Below, piece after piece: positions 1,801-58,142 of a stretch of 64,000 nucleotides of DNA. The notes under the pieces are model-generated. The model ran no database searches. It worked only from the letters and a program-made list of their open reading frames with translations, and had not been told where the DNA came from. Each line of letters opens with the position of its first letter. Position 1 is the first letter of the stretch. The DNA is from Hymenolepis diminuta (lineage: Eukaryota > Platyhelminthes > Cestoda > Cyclophyllidea > Hymenolepididae). The translations under genes and the position numbers were made by a program. The DNA lies in the NCBI GenBank assembly GCA_900708905.1, contig CAADRB010000021.1:1786157-1850156 (forward strand), written 5' to 3'.

Positions 1801-3407
1801 ATGGATAAGCCTCAAATTATCGGTCATTTGCACAAATCCTTAAATTATACATTATTTGATTGCAAATGGCTACCAGTGAGCACCAAATTCGCCGTTGTGG
1901 GCTCTAACCCTCGCGACACTGGGCAAATTCAAATCTACGACGTAACAGCAAAGGAACTTAGGCTCGTCACTGAGGTATGTTTAATACTACAAGCGAGCTT
2001 AATTCTTTTGAAAAGAAATGATTTCTAGTATTCGTCGTGACTAGAGAAGTGGTGTCCTAGAGCATCTTTGATGAAATACTTGATTTATACCAATCCTCTC
2101 CTGAACTTTACCAACGATTATGGTTTGTTATTTCACCCATGTTTCGATATCGTTCGCTCTGTTTTGCAGACCTTTGGTCAATCATCTCCAGGCCATTGGC
2201 ATTGCATTTAACGTGCACATCTGCAAAGTTAAGTCAGTTTTGGCACTCGTCGTACACCCAGTAGACGACTTTACCAGCCTTATCGGTTAGATTTATCAAC
2301 ACTTGGATAGAAAAATCTGAGTTTCTCATCAGAGACGATCTAGACTGCTACTTCTCTATCCAAGATTGTTGTTAGAATACGCTTCAATGAATTTGGGAAC
2401 TATTACCTACTTTAATTGATGTAACCACGTTTTTTTTTGCATAATTTACCTAGGCCGAAAAGTCCAAGTCGTACAAGTGCTGTACATTTGGAGCCTCTCG
2501 TCTACCGAACGCTCATCTGGCTACCGGGGCATTTGATGGACGTATGGCTATTTGGGATCTTGGAGATGGTGGCCGGTTGGATGCACCTCTTTACGCCGTT
2601 CAAGCTCACAAAGAAATAATCAACTCTATTGATGGCGTTGGTGGCCTTGGAGTTGGTGAAGGAGCCCCAGAAATAGCCACTGGTTCTCGTGATGGCTTTG
2701 TCAAAGTCTGGGATCCCAGACAAGCCAAAACTCCCGTAGTCACCATGGGACCCAGTGACGAGCCAAATACCGACGGTTCAACAGAAAGCCCCCGTGATTG
2801 TTGGACCCTGGCTTTTGGTCATGCCTACAACGTTCACGACCGCTGTCTCGTAGCTGGTTATGACAATGGTGATATTAAACTATTCGACCTTCGAACTATG
2901 CAAGTTCGTTGGGAGACTAACGTCCGAAATGGAGTCTGTTCTCTTGAATTTGACCGAAAAGATATTAATATGAATAAACTGGTGGCTACTACTCTGGAAT
3001 CGAGTATTCATGTATTTGATACGCGAACTCAACATCCTCAACGTGGTTTCGCATCGCTGACGGAGAAAGCGCACGATTCTACCGTTTGGCAAGTTCGACA
3101 TTTACCTCAACAACGTGACATCTTCATGACAACTGGAGGAAATGGCTCCTTGTGTTTATGGAAGTACAACTATCCAGAGAAGCGTCAGAAGATGGTCAAA
3201 ATGATGACATCTGGAGAAGGCGATGGAAAAGAAGTAGAAGTTCCAGAAGGCGTGATGGGAAAGCTCTCCCTTCTGCAAAATATCACCCTCGCATCACAAC
3301 CAATCGCTAGTCTGGATTGGTGTAAAGAGAAAATGGGATTAGCCATTTGTGTAGGATTCGATCAGGCTCTGAGATTACTCATTGTCACTAAGTTAAATCG
3401 AGTGTGA
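1801..3407 (+). CDS. WDR92: WD repeat-containing protein 92 (dynein axonemal assembly factor 10)
   Basis: Two exons, 1801-1974 and 2454-3407, joined by a GTATGT...TAG intron in phase 0, give 375 residues; human WDR92 is about 357. The start ATG lies just before the segment [20 protein letters not shown], which aligns with the human N-terminus. WD-repeat landmarks are plain: [48 protein letters not shown] and [11 protein letters not shown], ending in VTKLNRV as the human protein ends in VTKLNKI. The family is a single beta-propeller cytosolic co-chaperone adaptor that works with the R2TP-like complex in assembling axonemal dynein arms, so here it should serve sperm flagella and flame-cell cilia. 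The single intron carries a degenerate SINE. Its 3' end is convergent with EXOC6, with only 240 bp between the stop codons. Identification is very secure; exon borders are inferred from splice signals and homology. Confidence 0.95.
2195..2412 (+). repeat. tRNA-derived SINE copy, degenerate, in the WDR92 intron
   Basis: It shares the order of blocks seen in the better copies at 45.5, 50.1 and 61.4 kb: a head ending in an AGTCAG-type segment, a CACCCAGTAGACG-type block, then gagtttctcatcagagac, a ctctatccaagattgttgttag block and a tail like tgggaactatta. The A-box region is poorly preserved. The 3' end lies about 40 bp from the exon 2 acceptor. Confidence 0.6.
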
Positions 3408-3647: not shown

Positions 3648-6600
3648 TTAGGCGCGCTTAGAGCCAGCTTGAAGGTCTCTGAGTTGACGTAGGATGTCTT
3701 CAGTGCGTTTCCGACGTTCTCGTTCAGGACGTTTAGAGGAGCCAACAAGGAGGAAAGAGGGTGTGTTGTTGCGTCGCTTTTCAGCATCACGAATGCATTC
3801 CAGTAGTGAGATTGCCGCGACTGGTGTTACACGATCATAGGGGTTGCCTACAGAAAAAAACGTAGAAATAGCCCGACATGTTGATTACATACATTTAGCG
3901 TCAAAGGAATGTAACTGGCGTAGTGTTCAGCATACACGTCTTACCAATCGGGGCTCCGATATTAATTGGTCTGTATCCCGGAGTATGGATGAATAACCAA
4001 GCAGGTCAATACAGATGGAGAGTTTGTTACATGGAAAACTCGATGATTTTATTCCTAAGCTCATGGTGAGGATTTGAAAACATTTTCAGTAGAGTTAAAT
4101 GAAGTCTACCGATCATGAGACCTTAGGCAACTTTTGCTTCGATATCTACTAAGCCGTTACTATGGGAAATTTAGCAAGATAAAAAGAGATTTGCGGGAGA
4201 CAAGACATTAATCAACAGTTACTAAAACTAAATACTAAGGAATTTACGAGCCTGAACCAATAATACTGTGGACGCAAGACCAATTGGAGACAATTGACAG
4301 CCCCACCAACCACCTCCAAGCTATTATACCTACATGGATGATTTGACATTCATTCAATAAGTAGAGCTAGTTTAATGAAAGCAGCCTTCCCTCTTCTAAT
4401 ATGTAAAACAACCTCATAAGTGATCGATTGAATTGATCAGAAAAAGATAAACAACCAAGAGGAATGAACTCACCAGAGCTTTTTCCATAGTTAGCAAAGT
4501 AAACAGACCAATCGTTATTAAGCACGAGTTCAAGAAGTTGACGCAGTTCAGAGAAGATAAGTATGAGGATAGATTTGTCAATTCCTGGGACTGGGTTGGA
4601 TCGAGCGAATTTATCACACTCAGCCAAATCGACCAGCATTTGTGACATCGCTGGCTCTGAGACCATCTTGACCTGCAGCAGACAAAGAGCAAAAATTCGG
4701 ACGCCAATTAGATATTTTGATGGCATTAAATCAAAATGTTTTCAGTGGAAGCATTTGGAGCTCGTAATAATTTTAAACAAGGTAATAAATAGTCAGTGAA
4801 ACACAGCATACCCATAATTTATGAGATATCCATTCCCATGAAAAGATACTATATGTAAATATACTTTGAGTAACCATTTCTTATAATTTCTGAGAAACCC
4901 TACTAAACCTTTTTTTTAATAATGAATGATGACATCTGTTCTCGACATGACTGAGTTGAGAGCCCGTTGGAAATTACACTGGTAGAAAATATTATTGAAT
5001 TTTATGTGCTCGTCTGCAGTCAGAGGTCACAGTGAGCGGAACGGTCAGCCGCACTGATTAAGTCTAATCAAAATTCTAATTACTCGCCGGGGATGCTCAC
5101 TACTATAGATGGGTGTTGGAAAACGCTTTCCTAAATTGACTTAGGAGCCATATATTTAATTCTAATGATGCCAAGAGTAAGGCTTTAGAATTTCAATATC
5201 ATAGTTCTAAATTTGAAGAGCAAAATGTTATATTTTCTTTAAGATTAGCCTTTTTTGAGCAATTTGACGATATCAGATGAAATTAGGCTGATGATTGATA
5301 AAAAAATCATTTTGAAAGTTAATTTTTCACGAATGAAGACTAGTATTCAGATATGTACCTTCCTCATCAAGAACTTCACAAACTAGTTTAGGCTATAATA
5401 AAAGCACCAATCATTAAAGTCGTAAATCGTTTTTATACCAATTAAACGCTCTCCAACAACGAAGATGAGAGTGGTGCTGATACCACAACTTGAATAGAGA
5501 CGTAAGATCTCTTCTGATCTCCAACCGACGTGTTCCGACCCAACTGGTTCTAGCCTGCGATATCCTGCATTGACAATTCTTCCCTATATTTCTGTGTCCT
5601 TATAAAACTCAATTCCCCTATCGGTGTGTTTACCTAGTGTTTTGATCATGATACCCGCACACTTGGTCATCCGAAATAATTATAGATTGGGTAATTTACT
5701 TTCCATATTTAAAACAAGTTCCTTACTGTGCAGACGTCTCTTCGCTAACTTCCTGTTCTCAGGTAGTTCTAGATCAAGGCCTACTCTACGACGTGGACAT
5801 AAAACAAAGTAGGACCGGATTATGAAATATGCAACAGTGAAAACACAAGCGAATATTAACCGTCATCCATGGTTAACGACATTCATGACACCTGTCTGAA
5901 ATTAACTTTTCAGCTGTATCCTGAAGATGTAAGATTACAGTCCGAGCCACGGAGAAATTGACACTTTTCAAGAAGTAAATCGTCATATTTTTTACTGTGC
6001 TCTCCCTCCCCCCTCTCGGTAGATGTAGTATTGAAAGCTCTACATATCTCTATCCGATTCAATATTTCACTACAAACCTGAATTAACTGATATTTCTATC
6101 AATCAGATTGTGTTCAAACGTAATCACTACACATTTTAATGAAATCAGATTTAAATGAACTATTCGAGTTGATCCATCAAGTAAAAAATTGTTTCAACTC
6201 GTAAATAAATTGACAACCAGAAGTAGAAAACAAATGGCAATACACAAATTCAGCTTGCCATGACAACAAAAACCCATGATTCTTTGCTCTCTCTGAGAGA
6301 GATTTTCTTTGTGTGCACTCAAAGTAACCACAAGGCTACTAACTAGTTCATGCAAATTAAGGTCAAAAAATTTACCTTGCAAATACAGAATAAAATAAGT
6401 CAGTAAATTTGAACTTAATTTAACTGCATTAATGAAATTCTCATACAACCCCTCCAAGACAATATAAAAACCGATGAGAAGAATAGATTAGATTAGTTTA
6501 GTTCATGAGAACACTTATTTTGATTTTTGAAATAAATTACTATTGCTTTCTTTTTTGCCTGAGAACGGATAGTTAGAGCTCCTAGCTATTAAATTCTATT

Positions 6601-9600
6601 TTCAGCCAAATTTGTACACAATATGCATACTTAGTTCATTTGATAGAAAAAGTAATCCATTACTTCTAGTAGTAGAATTGTGCGAGATAGAGGATAGTAA
6701 AATATGAATATTTCGTTTTCAAAAAGTGAAGATTTATCTGAAGCTGGAGTTGGTACTGTTCCATCCCTTTTTCAATCCCAATTTCAATACATCTACGAAA
6801 ATGGACCCTAAACGTGTCTAAATGAGTAAATTGCGTCATCATTAATTTGAAAGAATTAAGTCAATTCGACCGAAGATAAAGTTCTTATCAAATATCAATA
6901 ACTGTCACTGTTACACAGATGGGCCAATAAGAAGCTTGAACTCCAGACATTACAAAATCAAATTTCCATGTTGCTCGAGATTGTCGTGGTCATTGAGCAA
7001 GATGATCGAATTCCTCACGTCCTTTAAAGCTCCTTGGCCCACCGTTATATTTTTCATATCCTTACAGACCTTTACACCTTTTCATTCTACACTGCCTTAT
7101 ATATAAGATTTTCTTCAATAAATATTTGGTTAGACCATGATTTCTTTAATTTCATTGATATGTGAAGCTGTATAACGCAAGTTTACCATCCATTCAAATT
7201 CAAACTCACCTCAGATCCCATGAGAATCTTCTGCAACAGTTTGACGATACACTTACAAGCCGAGATACACGCCGTATGGGCCACCTTCGGTGGGAGATGA
7301 GTGAAGGCGGCGAAAGTGGAGGCGAGCCACGACATCATATCCGTCATGTACTCACTTGTCTTGGTTGGTTCTGGCGCATCAATGAGTTGATCTAAACTCA
7401 ATTCACCCTCTCCTGGACCCCCAAAAATACCATCATAGGAGGCCAAGCTGCAAAATTCCTCAATCTTTGAGTTTAAATGGGTGTAGATTTGCGTCTCGGC
7501 TCGTGCGCGACAATCGCGGAATAAGGAGACACCGTAAAGGTGAGAGCGTGAAGGTTGGACTTCGTCAGGTTGAGAGGCCATTAGCGCTAGAATGTCTACT
7601 CCCTAAAACGGAATAAACTTTCAATTACTTCATTCGAAACGATACCTATTGTAAAACATCCCCAAAAGTTGCTTGTCAATTTATTCCAGTTTTCAGACCA
7701 CTTTATCTATCTCACACCTTCTGTTTACTGCTATTGGGACAGCCTTCTTTGTGAAGTATTTTCTACCTGCTTTCTATCTTATTTGAGATGAAGAAGTTAG
7801 AACAAGACTTTTCAAAATTTACTAGTGACTCCTAAGTTGTAGAATCTCAATAATGATATAGAGGAGAATAGAACACAAGGAGTTTACTTCGTCTGTCTTA
7901 ATTCTGATATTCGTTACGAAAGATGGCCAATATTACCTGCCAATTATTCCGGTATTGAGGAGACGACTCGCAATGTATAAGCAAATTTAATCAACAGAGC
8001 GAACACTAGTGAGCTATGCTATGCTAAGACTACGTAAGCTAGTAGCATCCTGCTTTCTCGGACGTTGGAAAGAAAGATTTGAAATGGTAAGACGGATCAT
8101 TTTAATTAATCAATTGGTCAATAAGGACTGGACGTTGTTATCAAAAATTTACCCAGTAATTCAGAGGAGAACTCAATAAAGTTAAGTTTTAGAATGTGAA
8201 CTACCCATTAAGTAAATATTGTACAGTGTATTGTTTGAAAGCAAAAAAACAAATGATATGACTCTTGACGTCTGAACCTTATTCTCGACATATTTTTTGT
8301 CAACTTCCCTTAATTCCTATTTGTTACTTTACTATTACTGGATTTCCACGACGAAGAAAATATATTTCTTTTCTTTCCATAAGTTATCAAAGAATAACTT
8401 AAACCCCTGATATTCTGTTCAAAGATCCTACTAAGTGGAAGAACATATTCCCATATAACTTATAAACGAGACAAACTTTATAACCTAGCTCTTATAATTT
8501 ACCCTCGACTCTGAGTGCTATTAAGTAGACTTTCATAGAAAAGTAAGACTTCAATTGAGATTTTCATTCTTTAACATATGAAATTTTTTATGGTAAGGAG
8601 CTTACGTCGTCATCTACTTGTTCATCATCAACAATCGCAGCTGATGTGGATGTGAAGAACTTGGGTCTCGCATGCTCATGGAGATAAGTCTGCAGTTGTT
8701 CACACGCACCTTCCAGTTCCGTCAGATTAATCGTCAACTGAATGAGTCTCAGTAAATTTCTCTCAGCAGCTTGAATGGTTGAGTTAAGTAAACCACCGAG
8801 ACAATCTGTGAAGAGGACATTAGTAGCCCTATTCAACGCATCCTCCAATTCCGTCCATGCAAGATCCGCTGACGGGGCTGCAATAAACTTCGCTGAAGCG
8901 TCAATATAATCCTGGATAGCCGAGTAGATTGCCGGAACCATGGGAGAGAAGACAAGGGTACGAGGATAAGGTTGGGAGATGAATTCGGCCAACTGACAGT
9001 AGGGATAGGAGGACAAATCGGGGGTCATATCAGCGGATGAGTTGAGTTGAATAGCCGTGTAGTTGTCATTTTGGAAAATTTCCTCAAATCGAACTTTCCA
9101 TTGATCAATAAGAAGGTGACTAAACTGCCTCCTTACGGCTTCAATCATCTCATTGAGACCTGCGGTGTGGAAGCCCAAATTAGACATCGTACGCTCAAAG
9201 AGGACACAATGATGCTTGAGACTCAGCAACTCCTCTGTTGTTCGACATGCGGTGGCATTGCGACTCACCAACTGGGTCAAACGGGGGACTAGGGCTGCCC
9301 AGAGATCAGAGAGGTAAGATTGGTAGTAGGAGGCCGCGGCGGCTGCGCCGGAACCATTTGATGCAGCTCCAGGCATTGTATGACGAAGATAGTCGTCCAC
9401 AAGGAAGAAACCGACCACTCGACTGAAGAACTCGCTGTAGTTGCGAAGGCTGGACTATAGAGAGGCAAAAAACACTGAATGGTGACGCACTCAAATAATG
9501 TTAACAAGGGAGCAAAAACAACAGCAATCCGATGGTGAAAAATGTGCAAAAAGAGTTGAAATCCATTACATCATACGCAAGTAATGAATAGTGAAGTATG

Positions 9601-11983: not shown

Positions 11984-14900
11984 GCATACATTATTCGCAT
12001 TTAGCCTCAGCAACCACTCAACCCTCCAACATATCATGCTACTCCACTTCTTTGATCTGCCCTCTTCTCTTTATGAAGATTTTATCTAACAAACCTTACT
12101 GATTGCAACTGTCTTCTCCCTCCCTTCTGACTTCGAAGTAAAGACCAAATGAGCAGTCCGCAGAATAGCTAGAGACCAAACTCAGATACCTAGATGCTAG
12201 TCCTCCTTCTAATAACCTATAACTCCTGACTCGATAACCGTACAAGTTGAGTAGGTAGCCATCTTCAAACTGTTCTTTAATCATAGTGGGTCTTTATTCT
12301 AAAGCTTTCTACATTTACTTATTGTGAACACAACACTGACACAGACACATAAACGTTTATTTTACTTCCATCGTCCCAACCGAACCAATGCATATTGTGC
12401 TGACGAAAAAGGGCATCTAATAAAAACAAGAAGGAGACATCAAAACTTTGCTAGATAGGTCAGATCATACAGTAGAGTATACGTATTAAGGTCTTACTCA
12501 TTCGATTAGACTGAAAGACACCACTTCTTTTGCGAACTTCTGGTTGAGGTCGAATTTGGGATCGGGAGAGTGGAATATCATTATCATCATCTCCCGACTC
12601 ATCACAATCGGAGGAAGATCGCGGTTTGACGGGTTTAGCCGGCGGCTGTCTCGACGTTGTCGATGTTTTGGGTCGTTGGGGAAGTGGCTGTGGCGCTGAC
12701 GCAGAGGTGGAATTTTCATCGAAAAAATCCTCCTTCATTCCGATCTTTTCAGCAGTTTGGTGCATTGCAATTGCACCGAGGCGAGTGGAGTGCTTGCGAA
12801 TCTCCTCTAGGAAATCGGTAAGCTGGGCAAGACTAGCCGTCTAGGAAAAAAAATGGACAGAATGGCAGGCCTTCAATGTTCATCGATGTACGCCACGTGA
12901 ACTCGGTGACCAACTGCATCGATGGAGGCAGAACTCAAATTTCTCGCTTGTGAGGCTTAATGAAGTAACCCCTCAACCCAAGAGGAGATAGAGCCTGGGA
13001 GTTATTAAACGGAATAAATTCTAAGTTGACTTCAATCCTAGTCATTTATTGAACTCCAAATGACTTGAAAACGCTCAGAGGGCGGTCAAGATAAATCAAA
13101 ACTTAGGAAAATTGAGATCTGACTTTCGTTTGCAATTATAAATTAGTTTATAAGAAATAAAATTCAATTCAGAGATGTAATATATAGTGAGACGGTCTTT
13201 ACAACCTATAACCTCTACAGCTTATTGCAAGAGAATGATCTAACCTAATAACCCCCAAGTTATGAAAGAAAAAACTAGTTAAGCCTTGCAAGAGTAACCA
13301 CAATGGACTGGCAGCCAGCAACAGCGGAAGGCAGTTTTAAAACTAGGACACAAGAGTTGTGTACGTCCAAGTTTATCGAACAAACCACGATGAGGATTCA
13401 AGAGAGTAAGAGATGAGGGAGGGGGAGATGAGAGGAAAAAGTAGGAGCCCGTAAATGTCAAGTGTATGTCCGCGAAAAAATGATTTGGTAGGAATATTAA
13501 GACAGTTAGACGTACTTGTGACGACTGCAATATTGAATGATTGATGATGGAAGTGATAGGGTAAGAGGAATTCAAATCCCCCATCTTCAATTACAAAGGC
13601 GAGGATTTATAACGTCTCATTTACCATTTATTAAAGCTACAGCTACTTCGATTAAAGGAAGATGAAAAGAGAAACTTATAGCTCGAACAACGCTCTGCAT
13701 TAACAAAATAAATATACTCATATAGGCTTGAATATGATAGTGGATTGTCTGGTCTGTCAATAGTGTAGCGACGGCTTCTCCACAGGGCGTCTTACATATC
13801 CTGGTGTGAGCGTGAGAATCAAATAATTGATAATCCAGTACACGAGAGAAAAATCTTACGAGTTTCCCTTGAGTGCAACTAAAATATTCGATTAGGCCTC
13901 CTAATACCTCTCCCTTTTGAGCTTGACTTTCCTCTACCGATCTGCGTTGTGTGGAGGGGGTTGGGGGGTTGACATAGAGAATTTGATGATAGCTAGCAAA
14001 TCCACTTCATTTCTCAGTCTTCAGGTGTCCACTCAATTTTTGATGGTGCTGTTTTTTTGTCGTAACCATGTTTTTTTTACTTTGAGATTCTTTTGAATGC
14101 CTGTTTAGAACACGTTAGGTCGACCGTTTCTCTGCTGCATGCATTTTGAACTGAATTGGCATAATTTGACAGAAGATCTGGGGCCACCAATTTTCAGAAA
14201 TCTATTAAGACATTAACTATAAGGGGAAATTTTTAAGAATAAAAACAATTGCCAGCACAATGAAAAGGAGGAATTTTTAACTTATATGCAGTTGTTTGCT
14301 TTTACTACCAAAATAGTGAAGGTAAAACATGAGTATTACAAAAAAGCACACTGTTGATCAAGTTTAAAAATGCAATACATGCATCAATTTTTTTTTTCTA
14401 TACACAAACTAATACCATTAACCGACTACATAAACACCATTCTATTCAATATAAACAGATTTTCAAGACCGATTAAATGTCATGACACGGATCTTGAGAC
14501 ATGCATTACCTTAATTTCAGCTCTCAATTCGGGGATACGTTTGGCTAGAGCTTGGGAGAAGGAGTAGGCCTGAATAGACTTAAGCTGATAATGTTCTAGA
14601 TACTCCAGAGACTTCAGTGCATGATAGTAACGACCCTCAGTAATACACTTTTCAACTTTCTCATATTGATCAATAACGGGAAGACAGGTTCGCAGTGCAG
14701 AGATACATTGATCGATACGATTGATAGTTGAGTGAGTTTTAGTGAGAGCTTCACTGGAATTGTTTAACTAGAAGAAGTAATTAGAAAATAGTGTTTATTT
14801 TTCAAGCAAACCTGTTGAACACTCGATTCCACGTTAGTGCGTATTTGCCGAAGAGTTTGTTGAAGTTCTTCGGCCTTCTCCTGCATCATCATTAACTCTT

Positions 14901-15162
14901 GGACGGATTCAACAAAGCTTTCATAGTTGTGGCTACATGTTTTCTCAATCTCTAACTCCCTGTCTGCAACTCGTTCATCTAGTCGGGCAATAAAGTTGGC
15001 TATAAGTTCACCAGTGGGTCCACCTTGTCCAGCTTCATAAGCAGCCACCTCATATTCACGAAGTTTACGAATAGCACTTGCGCAAGAACCACTACTACCA
15101 GATTCTAATTCATCAAGAAGGGCATTAAAGTCAATGGTGCCGAGAGTAGCCTCTGTAGTCAT
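3648..15162 (-). CDS. EXOC6: Exocyst complex component 6 (Sec15)
   Basis: Eight exons on the minus strand, in transcript order: 15162-14812, 14767-14510, 12840-12498, 11135-10876, 9454-8606, 7602-7210, 4672-4474, 3847-3648. All junctions are GT-AG and in phase, giving 950 residues; human EXOC6 is about 804. Sec15 is the exocyst subunit that binds Rab11/Sec4-type GTPases on secretory vesicles and links them to the tethering complex at the plasma membrane. Landmarks are LTDFLEEIRKHSTRLGAIAM (from residue 210), FGPIYRCLHIHSV, VVGFFLVDDYLRHT, FTHLPPKVAHTACISACKC and SELRQLLELVLNNDWSVYFA, each matching the human order. The extra length is partly a Ser/Pro/Gln and acidic linker at residues about 244-310, without clear counterpart in the vertebrate protein. 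The ATG lies 9 nt after the stop of the upstream COMM-domain frame in the same exon. Intron sizes run 44, 1669, 1362, 1421, 1003, 2537 and 626 bp. Confidence 0.93.
5006..5152 (+). repeat. tRNA-derived SINE, 5'-truncated, in an EXOC6 intron
   Basis: Contains gtcagaggtcacagtgagcg, ggtcagccgcactgattaag and ttggaaaacgctttcctaaa, which are the head end, body and 3' blocks of the local SINE family in the correct order. The tRNA-like A box is missing. It is antisense to EXOC6. Confidence 0.75.
9900..10095 (+). repeat. Possible degenerate SINE copy
   Basis: Weak match in block order to the SINE family: a gtcataggtcaagagatcga head-like segment, a central region, and gctccctccctaccaaagtt followed by ccttgggaacttta. 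It lies in an EXOC6 intron. Divergence is high, so it could be a chance or more distant relative. Confidence 0.35.
10455..10640 (+). repeat. tRNA-derived SINE body in an EXOC6 intron
   Basis: Shows gtacacccagtaagcgaaat, cggaattcgagtttctcacc and gaacgctttcctaaatgggt, three diagnostic blocks of the family, followed by gttattattaaac at the 3' end. The head is degenerate. Confidence 0.75.
11952..11982. repeat. (TA)n microsatellite
   Basis: An uninterrupted TA dinucleotide tract of about 30 bp within the 1362-bp intron of EXOC6. Confidence 0.95.
12880..13012 (+). repeat. Probable degenerate SINE copy
   Basis: Resembles the family in gaactcggtgaccaactgca, ggaggcagaactcaaatttc, ctcaacccaagaggagatag and cctgggagttattaaac, in the correct order. 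It lies about 40 bp upstream, in transcript sense, of EXOC6 exon 3, on the antisense strand. Confidence 0.5.
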
Positions 15163-15171
15163 CCTTGAGGT

Positions 15172-15444
15172 CTATTGATTAAGTTTCTTTAAAGCTGATT
15201 CAATATGTTTGTTACAATCGTCGAGGCCGGAAATCACTTTCAATATATCATCCGAGTTCAAATTCAGTTTGATGGACTTTCTGTCCTAAAACATTAAAAT
15301 GTAATTAAAAAGTGGGAAAAATACCTTTGATTTTGTCAAATCAAATTGAACGACTGCACAAGTACAATTATTGGGTAAGATACTCGGTTTTCGTGATATT
15401 ATTTCCCAGTTAAAAGATTCCAGACTATAGGCACGGGATGCCAT
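15172..15444 (-). CDS. Small COMM-domain protein (COMMD6/COMMD9-like), upstream cistron of EXOC6
   Basis: Two exons, 15444-15325 and 15285-15172, joined across a 39-bp GT-AG intron in phase 0, give 77 residues ending in TAG. The start MASRAYSLESFNWEII has the LxxFxW opening of a COMM domain. It continues with a hydrophobic strand (CAVVQFDL), a linker, a second strand (SIKLNLNS) and a terminal helix (DILKVISGLDDCNKHIESAL), the COMM order. COMM domains assemble the hetero-decameric COMMD ring of Commander, which works with retriever and CCC in endosomal recycling. Its size fits COMMD6, which is essentially only a COMM domain, but the strand pattern also recalls COMMD9. The frame stays open 5' of the ATG to a TAA at about 15500, so an upstream exon carrying the N-terminal helical domain cannot be excluded. 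The stop lies 9 nt from the EXOC6 ATG, in frame. The paralogue assignment is uncertain. Confidence 0.68.
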
Positions 15445-16951
15445 ATAAATAAAAAGATATCGATGATCTTCGTCCCGACTACAACAACCGGAAAGTGGAT
15501 CTTACAGATATTGCGTAACTTTGACCAATGAGATTCTGGATTTGCATTATTAAAAGTATCTCCGTGATAAATTCATAAATTGATTTACCAGATTTAAAAG
15601 AATATAACAGTGCCCTTTTAAGAAAATCTTCATAAAAATGGATTCAATACGCTCGGAAGAATATAAATATTTTCATCATTATGGGGAATAAATTATGACC
15701 ATAAAATTCGATTATAGTTTAAGGTAGAAATAAATATCTTGTGATCCCCTCTTATAGAAATTTCCCGCTTACTAACGAATATTTTCGGTACTCTTGTTCC
15801 TGAAATGTTATTTTACCGATTTTCAGATAAGTGATACATATTTCTTGATACGATATCTCATTATTGATTTTATGAAATAGTGTTTTCGATATTGGTCAGC
15901 CTTTCATCGACTTATTCATTACTTTTTTGTTCATAGTGGGAAAACCGTTCGAATTTTCTTAGGTTATCATATTTTAAGAAGCAAGTTTATACATTTTCCT
16001 AGAGCAAACCCAAATTAGTATCAACGAAATACAAGGATCTTACTTTACTTTCGATTGAAAATGAAGGTGTGCTCATTTGTTAGGCATTCAATACTGTGCT
16101 ATTAAATTCAAACTAAAGTAATGCAAATCTTTATCAATTTATTCGCTATTCTTTGCTGCGAATGTGTTCAAAGTCCGTGAATATTTAACACTGAAAAATT
16201 TCCCTTTATAAGGAAAATTGTATTTGAGCTTAAACTGTAAGCTTTTGAATATCATTAAAGACCATTTTGTCTTCTCAACCACCTGGAGAAAAATGAATTG
16301 TAGCGCTATGACTGGACCATATTGATTCAAAACCGATTGGTAAAAACTGAACATCATAGACGAGTATTTGCTGCAATCCAAGAGGCGAATTATGTAAATC
16401 GAATTTCCGAACGTAAAATACCCTCTTAGAAAATATTGTGTAACCCGAATCAAAACATTACTTGAAGTAGGACTCCATGAAAACTTTATGTCGATTCCAG
16501 TATCTCTTTGATTCCATCCCTTTGTCGTTTATCGGATTTTCTGTTAAGCGATGTCAGTTACTTCTCGTAATTGAAAAATGCAATATCTTTTATTACAAGT
16601 GTAGTATATTCAACGACATGTGTTCTAAACTACATAGTCAAGCACCCTTTTTTATTATCTATCAGTGAAAAGTATATAATCCTGTAAGATAAATTACATT
16701 AGAGATATAGACACTATGGTGAATTTATATCTGTGTGTGCGATTATTCGTTTTGCATAAAGAAATCACATATAAGAAAACTAATAGTGTATTTTATATTA
16801 TCAACTAGAAAATGTTAAAAGAAACAGATTGAGATGTCGTTTTATTTTTAATTTACTGACACCCATTGACAAAACTGTGTTTGTTTTAATAAGCGCTTTG
16901 TCTACTTGTTCGGCCTCTTCTCTGCAGCGCACTTTTTATTTTACCACCGGG
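15445..16951. other. Intergenic, divergent promoter region
   Basis: About 1.5 kb between the divergent COMM/EXOC6 unit and the PITP gene. A minus-strand open frame at 16139-16453 has no recognisable family and a composition like the AT-rich background. No core promoter element stands out. Both flanking units presumably start here. Confidence 0.45.
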
Positions 16952-18155
16952 ATGATTATCAAAGAATAGTAATTTTTAATTATTTTCTTCAGTCTTAATT
17001 TGCTGATTCTATTAATTATAAATGTAATTTTTCGCAAATTTAGCCGCGTCATTCTTCCCATGACGGTTGAAGAGTACCAAGTTGCTCAACTCTGGACTGT
17101 CATTGAGGCATCCAAAGATGAGACTGGCGGCGGTGATGGTGTTGAAATCCTTGTAAATGAGCCTTTTGATAAAAAAAATCACCCTCCGACTCAAGCCCTT
17201 CCTGGTGGCGAGGCTCACGTCAAGGGTCAATATACTCATAAAATTTATCACCTGTCCTGCAAGGTTCCCAGTTTTATTCGTATGATTGCTCCGGCTGGAG
17301 CTCTAAATGTCACTGAGTTGGCTTGGAATGCTTATCCCTACTGCAGGACGGTTATTACTGTAAGTATTTCGGATCTCAAGTTATTTGGGCAAATTTCTTA
17401 AGAACTAACTTATTTTTTCTTGATTATAGAACGAATATATGAAAAAGGACTTCTTCCTTAAAGTGGAGACTATGCACGTTCAGGATAAGATCGATATTGA
17501 AAACGTATGTTTATTTTCTTTATTCTCACCTCATACTTGTCTTTCAAAGGTTCATGAGCTACCCCCAGATATGCTAGCCAAACGTGAGGTCATTTACATC
17601 GATATTTCACAGGATTATGACGGCTCTAATCCTAAGTGGGATCCAAAAACATTCCAGTCGAAGACAACTGGACGTGGTCCTCTTGTTGGTCCTAGGTGGT
17701 GGGAGGTATGTATCTTGCCAATTTCTTAATTATTGATTTTGTGCGTAGAAAACTGACATGCCTGTCATGTGCGCCTACAAACTCGTAACTTGTAATTTCA
17801 AATGGTTGGGCCTTCAAAATTTGGTTGAGAGCTTTATTGCCAAGGTAAACCTCCCTCGTATCCAGTTTATTCATTTTGAGTGCATGTTTTAACATTGTAC
17901 GTAATTGACTTTCACAGGCTGAACACAGGCTCTTTTACAATTTTCATTGTCAACTCTTTTGCAATATTGACAACTGGCACCGTCTTTCAATGGATGATAT
18001 TCGAAGAATGGAAGCTGAAATAAAGGAAGAACTTGACAAGGTAACTATCTCTCCTCTCGCTTTCTACTTCATTTTGCTTTTAAGTTCTTATTTTCTTCTC
18101 CACTCTTTAGCAACGAAAAGAAGGTCACCTGAAAGGGACGGTTGAGACGAGCTAA
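16952..18155 (+). CDS. Class I phosphatidylinositol transfer protein (PITPNA/PITPNB type)
   Basis: Seven exons: 16952-16968, 17044-17359, 17430-17504, 17550-17705, 17749-17844, 17918-18040 and 18111-18155, all GT-AG and in phase, giving 275 residues (human PITPNA 270). The first coding exon is only 17 nt (MIIKE plus two bases of Tyr6) and corresponds to human MVLLKEY. The protein moves PI and PC between membranes. Visible are [40 protein letters not shown] (with the Thr and Lys that contact inositol), [25 protein letters not shown] and the C-terminal [11 protein letters not shown] helix. Two differences stand out. About 13 extra residues lie at 51-65 before KGQYTHK, and the membrane-docking double Trp of vertebrate PITPs (KFKWWGLQ) reads Trp207-Leu208 here. 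All introns are 43-75 bp. The family is certain; alpha versus beta orthology cannot be decided. Confidence 0.95.
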
Positions 18156-37960: not shown

Positions 37961-38410
37961 GGTGAATTAGACTGTCAAATTTGTTATGGGGGTCAGCAAA
38001 TTACTGCTGAATCCTTCGTTACAAATCAATCTGACTTGGATCTTCATGGTCTTGATTAGTTGGAAGAATTGAAAGTGATGAAGAAGATCATCGACTTCCT
38101 TCATGAAAAATCATCTCTGACTCAGACGACAGAATTAAAAACCAGCTGGAAGGTCAGCAAGTGGAATAAAAATCACGGGAAGAATTCCAGAGAATCTGTT
38201 AATGAAACAGGACTGAGAAGCGAATCGGACATTGGAACGACTGAAGATGAGCAGAACATAATCGAACGATCTTCTTCAGTTTCCACGGAGAGATGTATAT
38301 CTCTGTAAAAGTTTATATACTAAATTCTTGTCGATTCTATCCGGGATATTCCTGTCACAGTGGTGGGAATAAAGCACTCTTCAACGGAAGACTGAATTTG
38401 TGAAAACGAA

Positions 38411-39100
38411 ATGGCCATCTCATCATTAAAATGGGACTTCTTGAATCTATTCTACCGTCGTAAAGCATTTTACATTGTCGACTCCTGTTTGATGTCCAAT
38501 GAGGGAGTTGTCGTACCAGTTGTACTCAAGCAAAGAGTTCTTCGACAATTTCATTCTAGTCATCCAGGAACAAATCAAATGAAAACGTTGGCCAGAGGAT
38601 ACACATACTGGCCGGGAATGGGAAAAGACATAGAAATGCTTGTCAAAGGTTGTCTTAATGGTCAAAATCCTGCTAGAAACTGTCCCCTTGAAAGCCAATG
38701 CCATGCCTTCCAAAGAAGATAACATGGGTTAGTTGCATGTCGATTTTGTTGGTCGCAGTTTGAAGAATACTACAGCCAAAGAACTATTGATCACATCCGT
38801 ACGCCCCCATGTCACCCACAATCGAACAGCCAGGCGAAGCGACTTGTTGGCACGTTCCAAAGGGCCCCGCTGAAAGCAAAAGGGGAGGGATCGACGGAGA
38901 AAGTTATTCGAAAGTTCCTACTGACCTAGAGGACGACTCCCTATCCGATACTGGGTGGTAAAACACCTGCAGAACTACTAATGAGAAGAAAAGGTCGAAC
39001 CATTAACTATGCTATGATGCCCAATAATAAGACAAATGAGCTAATGAAAGTCGTAAAAGAGGTGTGTCCACAGTCGGTGATTTCGTGTTTGCTCGTGATT
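38411..39100 (+). pseudogene. Gypsy integrase remnant
   Basis: An open stretch at 38411-38722 carries the zinc-binding half (QFHSSHPGTNQMKTLARGYT, WPGMGKDIE, with the CxxC region changed to CLNGQNPARNC). After frame changes, the core resumes at about 38798 with CHPQSNSQAKRLVGTF, KAKGEGSTEKVIRKFLLT, a stop, then RTTPYPILGGKTPAELLMRR. Catalytic acidic residues expected between HVDFVG and the CHPQSN block are deleted. Confidence 0.85.
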
Positions 39101-55800: not shown

Positions 55801-58142
55801 AACTCGCACTCGACCACTCCTAGTACGGTTGGCCGAACACCTCTGGAAGTCTATCAAAGGGCATGGATCTCGTGACTTTTGATTTAATAGACGTGCCAAT
55901 TGATCAATACTAACATGTCATTTCAGCTGATAGGGGCATCCAGTAAAGAATAGAAATAATCCTATGGAAATCTTCAATCTGCAAATGATTTAATTATCAA
56001 ATAAAGTAAGGACAGAGGACATTTAGACTAATAGATGAACGTACGACGTTGCAAATTACTAACCCTACATATAATTCCCAGGATGATTCAGAAAAGCGTA
56101 TTTCAAAAATCTACTGCTATGAACCACTTTTAGTGAGGAACTCTTTATACTAGCCTAATTTAACAAGTGCGGTTGACAACTCCGTCCACTGAACATTGAT
56201 CCCGGGACCTCAGACCTTCCAGACGAGCACGCTAACCGCTACATCACTATGTTCACTAAACTCTACGCCATTGTTAACAGATTATTCACATTTATGCCAA
56301 CTTATCAATCAGGGATTCAGTGGCACAATGGTTAACGTCTTCGATTGTAAAGTCATTGACCAAAAATTAACATTAACAGATGAGGAAGGGCCAACAGCAG
56401 TGGTTAAGTAATGATTACTAAAAAGCGCTGCAGAATTCGAGTTTCTTATTAGGGAGTTCCATGGTGCCACCACCCTCCCCAACATAAGCTTGTAGTGTTC
56501 AATTTTATTAGCTTCCCAAATTAAAATTTTTCCCTCGTTCTTCACTATCTCGACCTCGGGGCTCTTACTACGCTCCCTCAACGTAGCTTGGAGTGCTTAA
56601 TTTCATGATATGACCTCGAGCATTCCTATACATATATTCAAGTAGTTTCTTTTAATTAGATTGGCAAAACCACGTAATTGACTCTTGAGTGACCGTTGAT
56701 GGGTGTTGGTTTCCTCCAATAAGAGGTCTCACAAACCTTCTTGCCTTTTCATGTTACCCCCACTTAAACATGCACGTCTCACTTCCACTTCATTCTCCTC
56801 TCTCGTGGCTTCCGGTTACCTCTCTTCGTCTTGTGTCATAAAGATCGAAGAAGCTAGAAAGACGAAAGCAAAGCAAAAGTCTACAATCTCTGAGATAATA
56901 ACCTATAACCTACCACCCCTTCAACAAGCTAAGCGCTTTCCTAAAAAGACTTGTGGATTACAGGACTAACCTAGCACTGTGTGAAGCTATGTAGCATGGT
57001 AATACGAACATCTATGCGAACAACACATACCGTCATCGCCTCCAGAATCTCGACCGCGCAATTTGACAGCAAATATTTCAATGCGCTCCTTGACCACTCG
57101 TAATTCATCTTCCCTAGTGGACATCCTCAGAGATTGAATAAAGTAAGGACTGGTAAAAGCCGATTCATTACACTATACACACAGAAGCACATTTACTCAA
57201 ATTAATATTAGCAGACTTACTAATTTAATAATCGACTGATTCACAAAATCCGGATCGGCGAGAATATTTACCGTAGGTAAGAGAACCCCATTCACCAATA
57301 TCTCCTACATTTTTTATGAATACACATTTTATACTACTGACTTACTTTCAGTAGATATCGAACTGTTAGTAATCGATAGTCCTCTTCAGGCATAATGGCA
57401 AAGAGGAATACATCAGTTATTCGTCTAAAGTGGTCTAATTCCTTTTCGCGAGATGTGCAGACTTCCTCTCGGCAAAATTGCACTTCGGTTTCCATTTCTT
57501 CATCAAAGAAGAATTTTGTAGGAACAGCAGAGTTTGAAGATCGAGCATATCTCTCAAGAGATCTCCGATGAATTCGAAGATGATCAATAACTATATTGGG
57601 AAGGCCTTCAATCATAAAAGGAATCCAATCAATTCTCTGAGCCCGTTTCGATACTTCAGCCATTAATTGAGCCATTGCAGCATGCAATTGTTGAGGAAAT
57701 TCCGTTTCGTTAGTGAGTGACGTATACCAAAAGCGAATGTAATCATTAATGATGTAATCAAGGATCTAAAATGGCCTATTTGAATGGGAGATAAATCCTA
57801 CTTGATTTAGAACAACATCAAATTCATGACAACCAGAAATAGCATAATTGACTTTAAGATGCGACATACTAGCTTTTTTATCGTCAACCTATACGAAGGC
57901 AGATTATTTAAATAGAGAACCAAACCTCAACAAGACCATGAGAAATTGGAATTTTGCGCTTCAGTGGAACCCAGTGAACCTCGGGTAGGAAAAAGAGAAG
58001 TCTTAAAACATAAAATGTAAAAAATTAACTACCCTGCAGCAAATGAAAGCAATCCACAAGTGATGTACACAAAAACACCGACCCCATAGGCGAACAGTGA
58101 GCCAAAGAACGCCAAGATGGCTAATTTACGCAAAGACGGCAT
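40872..58142 (-). CDS. SNX13: Sorting nexin 13 (PXA-RGS-PX-nexin C protein)
   Basis: Twenty-one exons, all in phase: 58142-58033, 58001-57926, 57888-57802, 57765-57346, 57304-57221, 57172-57031, 53463-53357, 53264-53241, 53063-52961, 51249-51194, 51104-50760, 49812-49587, 48763-48714, 48650-48593, 48120-47984, 47900-47796, 46876-46781, 46268-46053, 44545-44381, 43045-42844, 41068-40872. They give 1001 residues; human SNX13 is about 960. Domains: membrane anchor at residues 8-45 (LAILAFFGSLFAYGVGVFVY); PXA about 63-290 (RAQRIDWIPF, EILVNGVLLPTVNILADPDF); RGS about 365-545, split by an acidic, Gln-rich insert at 410-450; PX about 632-735 with TYRRYSQFDDLH and LPAKKSF; nexin C about 815-975 (DNIPFRILFMLVDEVFNLQ, ILRDVLWPNG, LGQETTREGVQRVFDLLQQP). 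SNX13 anchors in the ER and contacts endosomes or lipid droplets through PX binding to phosphoinositides; its RGS region acts on G-alpha-s in vertebrates. The first five introns are 31-48 bp, then one of 3567 bp. Confidence 0.93.
41340..41452 (+). repeat. Dispersed repeat family with an acgtgttct core, copy 3
   Basis: Shares attgatacaatgcaataaca and aagacgcgttctccccgtgt plus tcttttgga with the copies at 22.99 and 19.77 kb. It lies in the last intron of SNX13. Confidence 0.4.
43262..43328 (-). repeat. tRNA-derived SINE head, minus strand
   Basis: The minus strand reads actcgccaacagtttagcgg then ttagcgtacgtgtctgtgga, matching the A-box region and anticodon-side segment of the SINE heads at 56.2 and 24.2 kb. 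It is a short fragment in an SNX13 intron. Confidence 0.55.
44668..45008 (+). repeat. Unclassified 0.35-kb dispersed repeat, copy 2
   Basis: Same orientation and block order as 24536-24895 (see that entry). It lies within the 1507-bp intron between SNX13 exons 18 and 19, antisense to the gene. Confidence 0.7.
45455..45700 (+). repeat. tRNA-derived SINE, near full length
   Basis: Among the better copies: ggtgtattggtcatcgtgaa (A-box region), aatggtagaggtcaagaatt cgatttc (B-box region), cccaattaagcgagcggaat, agagtggcagaattcgagtc, ggctccatgatgtcactctc, gcgttggaaaatacttcctt and ggcttgggaattatt at the 3' end. It lies in an SNX13 intron, antisense to the gene. Confidence 0.8.
45892..46020 (+). repeat. 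Possible 5'-truncated SINE copy
   Basis: gatgtccattggtgcacact resembles the tRNA/body boundary of the family (gcccatcggtacacacccag type) and ctccctctctactcaagtta the 3' block. The central region is eroded. It ends about 30 bp from SNX13 exon 18. Confidence 0.4.
50085..50292 (+). repeat. tRNA-derived SINE, near full length
   Basis: Shows acgaagtggttcaagtgttc (A-box region), agcacagaggtcacaggttt gatac (B-box region), aacacacccagtgagtggaa, gcagcagattttgagttctt, gggactccctactccaagat and tattcgaaaacgccttccta, then a tcggaattatag end. It lies in the SNX13 intron between exons 11 and 12. Confidence 0.85.
50560..50585. repeat. (AT)n microsatellite
   Basis: An AT dinucleotide tract of about 26 bp in an SNX13 intron. 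Confidence 0.95.
51385..51545 (+). repeat. tRNA-derived SINE, 5'-truncated
   Basis: gtcagaggtcatgaattcga, tggcagaatggcttacagca, agagagtggcaaaattttct, ctgtgcccaagatgagcgtt and ttgggaattattattaatac follow the family order. It lies in the 1711-bp SNX13 intron. Confidence 0.75.
52742..52850 (-). repeat. tRNA-derived SINE head, minus strand
   Basis: The minus strand reads tcgccagtggctcactagcc, aacgtgcacgtttgctacgt and cagaggtcgcgagatagatg, the tRNA-like head of the family. It sits in the large SNX13 intron just downstream of exon 9 in the transcript sense. Confidence 0.65.
53241..53264 (-). other. SNX13: SNX13 24-nt microexon
   Basis: Eight codons (GFRRRQPK) between the end of the helical region after the PXA domain and the RGS region. 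It is flanked by TTCGCAG and GTACCA, is phase 0 on both sides and could be skipped without breaking the frame. It adds a basic patch. Called from splice signals and phase only. Confidence 0.6.
55080..55278 (-). repeat. tRNA-derived SINE copy, minus strand
   Basis: The minus strand reads cacctgtggcatagtagtca (A-box region), gtgtacgtctgaaaagtctg agatcatcgg, gagctgaataacggaccaca ctggttggttaagtctag, and a truncated 3' part ending in aatgggcttgaaaattta. It lies in the large SNX13 intron, sense to the gene. Confidence 0.75.
56105..56265 (-). repeat. tRNA-derived SINE copy, minus strand
   Basis: The minus strand has one of the best heads: atagtgatgtagcggttagc gtgctcgtctggaaggtctg aggtcccgggatcaatgttc, followed by cagtggacggagttgtcaac cgcac and a truncated body. 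It lies about 50 bp from a plus-strand copy, so the two form a head-to-head pair. Confidence 0.8.
56310..56490 (+). repeat. tRNA-derived SINE copy
   Basis: tcagtggcacaatggttaac (A-box region), ttcgattgtaaagtcattga, then agcgctgcagaattcgagtt tcttattagggagttccatg and ccctccccaacataag. The body is partly rearranged. Its head faces that of the minus-strand copy at 56105-56265. Confidence 0.75.

What the first reader, a model, noticed from the sequence alone, without database searches (positions are those of the whole stretch)
14812..15444. COMM-domain cistron ends 9 nt before EXOC6, in frame, in one exon
The minus strand reads AAT CAA TAG ACC TCA AGG ATG ACT: the stop of a COMM-domain frame, three sense codons, then the EXOC6 start, with no splice site between the two proteins. 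Two genes this tight need a mechanism: (a) a polycistronic pre-mRNA resolved by spliced-leader trans-splicing, known in flatworms; (b) re-initiation on a bicistronic mRNA; or (c) TAG readthrough giving a COMM-Sec15 fusion. CAATAG could itself act as the acceptor. A leader ending in AUG, as in known flatworm leaders, would then run in frame into ACC TCA AGG ATG. The pairing would co-express a Commander-type and an exocyst subunit, both endosomal recycling factors.
Basis: partly seen in the sequence, partly recalled or inferred. Interest (0 to 1): 0.85.

Follow-up and report, generated by a model that had tools for sequence, protein, structure and literature searches.

The report
Small ORF abutting tapeworm EXOC6 gene
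In a rat tapeworm, a short two-exon reading frame that faintly resembles a COMM domain ends nine bases before the start of the exocyst gene EXOC6; the likeliest reading is a small protein encoded in the leader of the EXOC6 message, not a spliced-leader junction at its stop codon.

Summary
The letters are as described: on the minus strand a TAG (15174-15172) is followed by nine bases and the in-frame EXOC6 ATG (15162). The genome is taken to be Hymenolepis diminuta. The EXOC6 start is shared by 30 of 41 homologues. The upstream frame is a 77-codon, two-exon ORF (15444-15325, 15285-15172); one annotated relative was found (H. weldensis, 77 aa, 91% identical, same start and end). Its COMM label is weak: Pfam does not report it and AlphaFold is unsure, yet it outranks 617 of 617 window ORF pieces against a COMM profile. 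Three spliced-leader RNA-like genes, all ending ATG|GT, lie in this genome, so trans-splicing is possible. I favour one transcription unit whose mRNA carries both ORFs, EXOC6 being reached by leaky scanning (0.45). Rivals: an untranslated leader ORF, trans-splicing at the shared acceptor, overlapping units. No RNA data were on hand, so no mechanism is shown.

The parts
15325..15444 (-). Exon 1 of the 77-codon upstream ORF (MASRAYSLESFNW...KSK); ATG at 15444-15442
   Evidence: 35 of 40 residues identical to H. weldensis P0042
15286..15324 (-). 39-nt intron of the upstream ORF, GTATTT...TTTTAG; its acceptor (15291-15286) matches UUNYAG
   Evidence: inferred: P0042 runs without a break across this junction, no transcript seen
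15172..15285 (-). Exon 2 of the upstream ORF, ending in TAG 15174-15172
   Evidence: P0042 ends at the same residue
15163..15171 (-). Nine-base spacer ACCTCAAGG; no acceptor matching UUNYAG
14812..15162 (-). EXOC6/Sec15 exon 1, start codon 15162-15160
14768..14811 (-). EXOC6 intron 1 (44 nt); holds AATAAA at 14799-14794, the only AATAAA/ATTAAA on this strand in 15500-14400
14510..14767 (-). EXOC6 exon 2
15479..15484 (-). TTGTAG, the other UUNYAG match in 15600-15100, 34 nt upstream of the upstream ORF's ATG: candidate cis or SL acceptor for the whole unit
   Evidence: 4.6 bits, 96th percentile of AGs
16952..17398 (+). Divergent phosphatidylinositol transfer protein gene (start MIIKE by my reading; exon with IP_trans domain); leaves about 1.5 kb for promoters
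   Evidence: the ATG at 16952 is my own reading of the frame, not a tool result

Best explanation
The 77-codon frame is a small-protein gene in the leader of the EXOC6 transcription unit. One promoter in the 1.5 kb between it and the divergent PITP gene makes a pre-mRNA; the 39-nt intron is cis-spliced; the mRNA carries both ORFs nine bases apart. Some ribosomes start at the first AUG, which has a poor context (T at -3), and make the 77-aa COMM-like protein. Others scan past it to the EXOC6 AUG, which has A at -3. Shown: the anatomy, the EXOC6 start, the H. weldensis relative, the start contexts, the lack of a good acceptor between the ORFs. Inferred: the intron's use, the shared mRNA, its translation, leaky scanning.
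For: Intact two-exon ORF with a 39-nt intron, 0.05% by simulation. Relative P0042 in H. weldensis with the same start and end, unbroken across the junction, 70 of 77 residues identical. No good splice site between the ORFs: the AG of the stop and the AG of the spacer score -6.7 and -3.4 bits against 7.9-16.5 for six EXOC6 acceptors. Start contexts tttatttatATGGC (ORF), tgaactcggATGAT (a three-codon ORF inside), acctcaaggATGAC (EXOC6). EXOC6 start shared by 30 of 41 hits.
Against: No RNA or ribosome data. Codon usage of the frame is weak: -0.09 bits per codon against a mean of 0.30 for EXOC6 slices (trained on themselves), and 56 of 506 overlapping non-coding slices do as well. AUGs are not depleted in it: 2 seen; 38% of 20000 recoded versions have 2 or fewer. 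Only one relative was found in two searches (with 2 and 6 candidates), none named from Echinococcus, Taenia or flukes, and no annotated H. diminuta protein of this frame was listed. The COMM label is below significance.
Confidence: 0.45

Rival explanations
1. The upstream frame is not a gene: it is a chance ORF, or an untranslated or merely regulatory uORF in the EXOC6 5' leader, and P0042 is a gene model of the same chance ORF in a sister species.
For: Weak codon usage, no Pfam match above cut-off, uncertain fold, no relatives found outside Hymenolepis. The 37-codon open stretch alone is not rare (7.1%).
Against: The two-exon frame is rare by simulation (0.05%) and intact in H. weldensis at 91% identity. 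It scores above all 617 window ORF pieces against a COMM profile.
Confidence: 0.25
2. Operon resolved by SL trans-splicing at the small gene's own intron acceptor (15285), or SL-capping at 15478. EXOC6 mRNA would be SL + exon 2 of the small ORF + EXOC6; the SL AUG at 15285 opens a 38-codon frame that ends at the same TAG.
For: Three SL-RNA-like genes in this genome. TTTTAG and TTGTAG match UUNYAG and lie at the 95th and 96th percentile of AGs. PMC12582326 reports that cis- and trans-splicing often share acceptors and a median of 448.5 operon candidates in cestode genomes.
Against: The same paper says cis-splicing is strongly prevented at acceptors that resolve operons; 15285 is needed in cis for the small ORF. 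The SL-capped EXOC6 mRNA would still need scanning past a 38-codon frame.
Confidence: 0.17
3. Two overlapping but separate units: EXOC6 has its own promoter inside the small gene, and the small mRNA ends in EXOC6 intron 1 at the AATAAA at 14799.
For: The only AATAAA/ATTAAA in 15500-14400 on this strand lies in EXOC6 intron 1.
Against: AATAAA is common by chance in AT-rich introns (general knowledge, not computed here); no promoter evidence was sought or seen.
Confidence: 0.08
4. One reading: the SL joins at CAATAG (15171) or at 15163.
For: An SL AUG at 15171 reads MTSRMTTEA in frame.
Against: -6.7 and -3.4 bits; neither matches UUNYAG; 15163 puts the SL AUG out of frame.
Confidence: 0.03
5. 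TAG readthrough makes a COMM-Sec15 fusion.
For: The frames agree and only four codons (TAG, ACC, TCA, AGG) separate the two ORFs.
Against: UAG followed by ACC is not a known leaky context (recalled); the H. weldensis protein ends at the same residue; none of the 30 EXOC6 hits with the normal start carries an extension.
Confidence: 0.02

Closest known systems
Dicistronic mRNAs with a small first ORF (SNURF-SNRPN, MIEF1 microprotein, ASDURF-ASNSD1; recalled, from no call)
   Same: A short coding ORF sits in the leader of a larger housekeeping ORF on the same strand, without a splice site between them
   Different: No transcript or translation evidence here; a nine-base spacer; this pair was not met in my one literature search for it
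Flatworm SL operons (PMC12582326, PMC3254664, PMC5832876)
   Same: Same strand, within 300 bases, in a genome with SL-RNA-like genes whose leaders end in ATG
   Different: No UUNYAG acceptor between the ORFs; the 45 S. mansoni pairs analysed in PMC12582326 had an intercistronic distance of at least 5 bp, median 99 bp
COMMD6, the COMM-only member of the Commander complex (77-85 aa chains in the PDB)
   Same: Length, Trp in an L-x-x-F-x-W motif near the start, end just after the predicted C-terminal helix
   Different: Not detected by Pfam; far below true COMM domains in score

Membership tests
COMM domain (PF07258) | Reaches the Pfam model's cut-off | tested here: not met
   Searches (E up to 1; E up to 10): PF07258 not reported; only DUF1919 at E 0.05
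COMM domain (PF07258) | Conserved Trp motif at the start of the domain, domain at the C-terminus | tested here: met
   LESFNWEI aligned by hhalign to the COMM Trp motif (probability 6.5%, E 0.0056 for one comparison); W is the one invariant column of A2
COMM domain (PF07258) | COMM fold (strands followed by a C-terminal helix; recalled) | tested here: inconclusive
   pLDDT 54.7 and 47.7; first model strands then helices, second partly so; searches list no COMM chain among the rows shown
EXOC6/Sec15 | EXOC6_Sec15_N domain and full-length homology | tested here: met
   (E 1.5e-35)
Flatworm SL operon | Genes on one strand within 300 bases | tested here: met
   nine bases between the coding frames
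Flatworm SL operon | Acceptor matching UUNYAG between the cistrons | tested here: not met
   none in the spacer; nearest is 15285, inside the upstream ORF
Flatworm SL operon | SL-RNA genes in the genome | tested here: met
   three loci
Flatworm SL operon | SL-bearing reads on the second gene | not testable with these tools
   no RNA reads on hand
Dicistronic mRNA with a coding uORF | One mature mRNA spanning both ORFs | not testable with these tools
   no RNA reads on hand
Dicistronic mRNA with a coding uORF | Upstream peptide conserved in relatives | tested here: inconclusive
   one relative in one sister species

The most novel reading that the evidence does not exclude
A COMMD6-like, COMM-only microprotein is encoded in the leader of the EXOC6 mRNA in Hymenolepis, so that one message yields a Commander-type and an exocyst subunit in a ratio set by start-codon choice, with SL-capping at 15285 as a switch that removes the first product.
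Probability: 0.22. Interest if true: 0.65.

Novelty: new member of a known kind. Interest (0 to 1): 0.35.

Why it matters
If both proteins come from one mRNA, it would be a physically linked pair from two endosomal recycling complexes, testable with tapeworm RNA data. It would also show a limit of distance-only operon calls in flatworms: a nine-base gap without an acceptor points to a coding uORF rather than to SL resolution.

Tried and rejected
Foldseek and VIA-align of the AlphaFold model: no COMM chain among the rows shown; the model is too uncertain to count either way. PDB by sequence: one row, a reovirus sigma-1 chain at E 0.43, taken as chance. COMM search of the whole genome by PF07258: nothing, and the 14 control genomes gave nothing either. 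NCBIfam: nothing. Echinococcus-like SL patterns recalled from memory: one search gave 124 matches against 97 in the control, one search gave 4 against 15; the H. microstoma SL3 primer of PMC12582326 gave one match that is no SL gene. A gapped pattern from both then gave 12 matches, three of them SL-like; other SL genes with a different core would be missed. An alternative first exon of the small gene spliced in at TATAG (exon start 15424) was considered: by eye I saw no HN domain in the translation of 15.1-17.1 kb, and P0042 starts at MASRAYS, so it was dropped, not excluded. Rfam: no match in the window at gathering scores. Plasmid tblastn of the peptide: no match, as expected. That this pair is not in print rests on one listing (terms COMM domain, exocyst, trans-splicing, operon, flatworm; 8 of 31 papers listed, none of the 8 holds COMM domain or exocyst); supplements could not be read.

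Full report
What is there. On the minus strand the window reads AATCAATAGACCTCAAGGATGACT. The TAG is at 15174-15172, nine bases follow, and the EXOC6 ATG is at 15162-15160, in the same frame. EXOC6 exon 1 runs to 14812 and is followed by a 44-nt intron. The first 203 residues match EXOC6_Sec15_N at 1.5e-35. The best database hit, P0001, is a Hymenolepis diminuta protein of 956 aa; its contig is 2,537,350 bases long, the same as contig C80 of the window's own genome, so the window is taken to be H. diminuta. P0001 maps to the window in eight blocks at 93-100% identity (rows at 80% or less were dropped); one of its seven inter-block junctions was not resolved.

The EXOC6 start. Of the 41 homologues, 29 carry the motif of the LLDELESGSSGS stretch 11-18 residues from their first Met, and P0032, a monogenean, has a variant of it by eye: 30 in all, none with an extra N-terminal domain. 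Four models (P0011, P0031, P0033, P0040) begin elsewhere, and seven (P0034-P0039, P0041) are from other animals or unnamed. So this ATG is the normal start, and no annotation shows a COMM-EXOC6 fusion; annotation would however not show stop-codon readthrough.

The upstream frame. Read back from the TAG, it is open for 37 codons to an acceptor TTTTAG (15291-15286); a 39-nt intron separates it from a 40-codon exon that starts at ATG 15444. Two protein searches with it (2 and 6 candidates) gave one relative, P0042, a hypothetical protein of Hymenolepis weldensis, 77 aa, 70 of 77 identical, with the same start and end and unbroken across the junction. No other tapeworm or fluke relative appeared; such short genes are often not annotated and the search needs shared five-residue words, so this absence is weak. 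In first-order simulations of the surrounding non-coding DNA, a frame of 37 or more codons ending within 12 nt of a start arises in 7.1% of cases, 2.8% in the same frame; a two-exon ORF of 76 or more aa arises in 0.05% (the donor words and the acceptor motif allowed in that script include the ones seen here). Against a coding role, the codon usage of the frame is weak: -0.09 bits per codon, mean of EXOC6 slices 0.30 (trained on the same exons), 56 of 506 overlapping non-coding slices at or above it.

Is it COMM? Pfam reports no COMM hit, only DUF1919 at E 0.05, and NCBIfam nothing. It gives the peptide 6.0 bits; 21 of 5000 shuffles reach that (4696 rows were returned) and none of 617 ORF pieces of the window does. 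The nine COMM domains score 24.5 to 54.1 bits when each is left out of the profile. AlphaFold on P0042 alone predicts strands followed by C-terminal helices, the order of a COMM domain (recalled), at pLDDT 54.7; with the window's two exons added it falls to 47.7 with fewer strands. So it is COMM-like, in the length range of COMMD6, and I do not file it as a COMM member.

Trans-splicing. PMC12582326 (abstract, sections 7, 9, 10, 14, 15, 19 and passages seen) covers 24 flatworm species, H. diminuta among them: SLs end in AUG with few exceptions, acceptor motifs match UUNYAG, operon candidates lie within 300 bases, and acceptors are widely shared between cis and trans splicing. In this genome I found three loci of the form TCGGTCTTAC...TTGTATG|GTGAGTATCG followed by a TTTGGCTGGTCC block (C2:729298, C7:4047471, C56:3258854; 12 matches in all, 3 in the reversed control, flanks of 7 of 12 inspected). 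The strict Sm-like motif TVTTTGG is present in two of the three; the third reads TTTTTGG. The machinery is therefore likely present. A matrix of six EXOC6 acceptors gives these 7.9 to 16.5 bits (self-scored), TTTTAG at 15285 4.1, TTGTAG at 15478 4.6, CAATAG at 15171 -6.7 and CTCAAG at 15163 -3.4; among 7642 AGs of the window these last four lie at the 95th, 96th, 33rd and 59th percentile. An SL at 15285 would leave EXOC6 behind a 38-codon frame opened by the SL AUG and closed by the same TAG; an SL at 15478 would open a short frame out of phase with the small ORF.

How it most likely works. The divergent PITP gene (IP_trans, E 2.1e-36) begins near 16952 on the plus strand by my reading, so about 1.5 kb lies between the two first ATGs. 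The simplest reading is one promoter there and one mRNA with both ORFs. The first ATG has T at -3, a three-codon ORF inside has C at -3, the EXOC6 ATG has A at -3, which suits leaky scanning; re-initiation nine bases after a 77-codon ORF would be inefficient (general knowledge). All steps after the anatomy are inference. AUGs are not depleted in the ORF, which speaks against long-standing selection for scanning through it.

Known kinds. Coding uORFs ahead of larger genes are known in animals (recalled examples), and SL operons are known in flatworms. This is at most a new member of one of these. For S. mansoni, the 45 operon pairs analysed in PMC12582326 had an intercistronic distance of at least 5 bp, median 99 bp. 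Other papers were seen as passages only: PMC3254664, PMC5832876, PMC7653826, PMC7986045, PMC7346339, PMC8629364; PMC6890685, the H. diminuta genome paper, only in a listing.

Noticed in passing
G000 C2:729298, C7:4047471, C56:3258854 (L020, L022, L023): Three diverged spliced-leader RNA-like genes, all with leaders ending TTGTATG and a shared block after the donor; these three lie on three different contigs. Others may exist.
   Followed up: partly
window 6686-6774 (+): tRNA-Leu (CAA) by ARAGORN between EXOC6 exon blocks, on the opposite strand.
   Followed up: no
window 2454-3404 (+): WD40-repeat protein frame that lies tail to tail with EXOC6, whose last matched block ends at 3651.
   Followed up: no
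window 38396-38719 (+): Integrase zinc-binding domain (PF17921), probably a retrotransposon fragment.
   Followed up: no
window 57337-57765 (-): PXA-domain exon (PF02194), as found in some sorting nexins (recalled): perhaps another endosomal gene in the same window.
   Followed up: no
window 15505-15535 (-): Good-looking donor CTGTAAGA at 15505 and a CAG acceptor (exon start 15535, only -2.6 bits) upstream of the small ORF: possible 5' leader micro-exon, untested.
   Followed up: no
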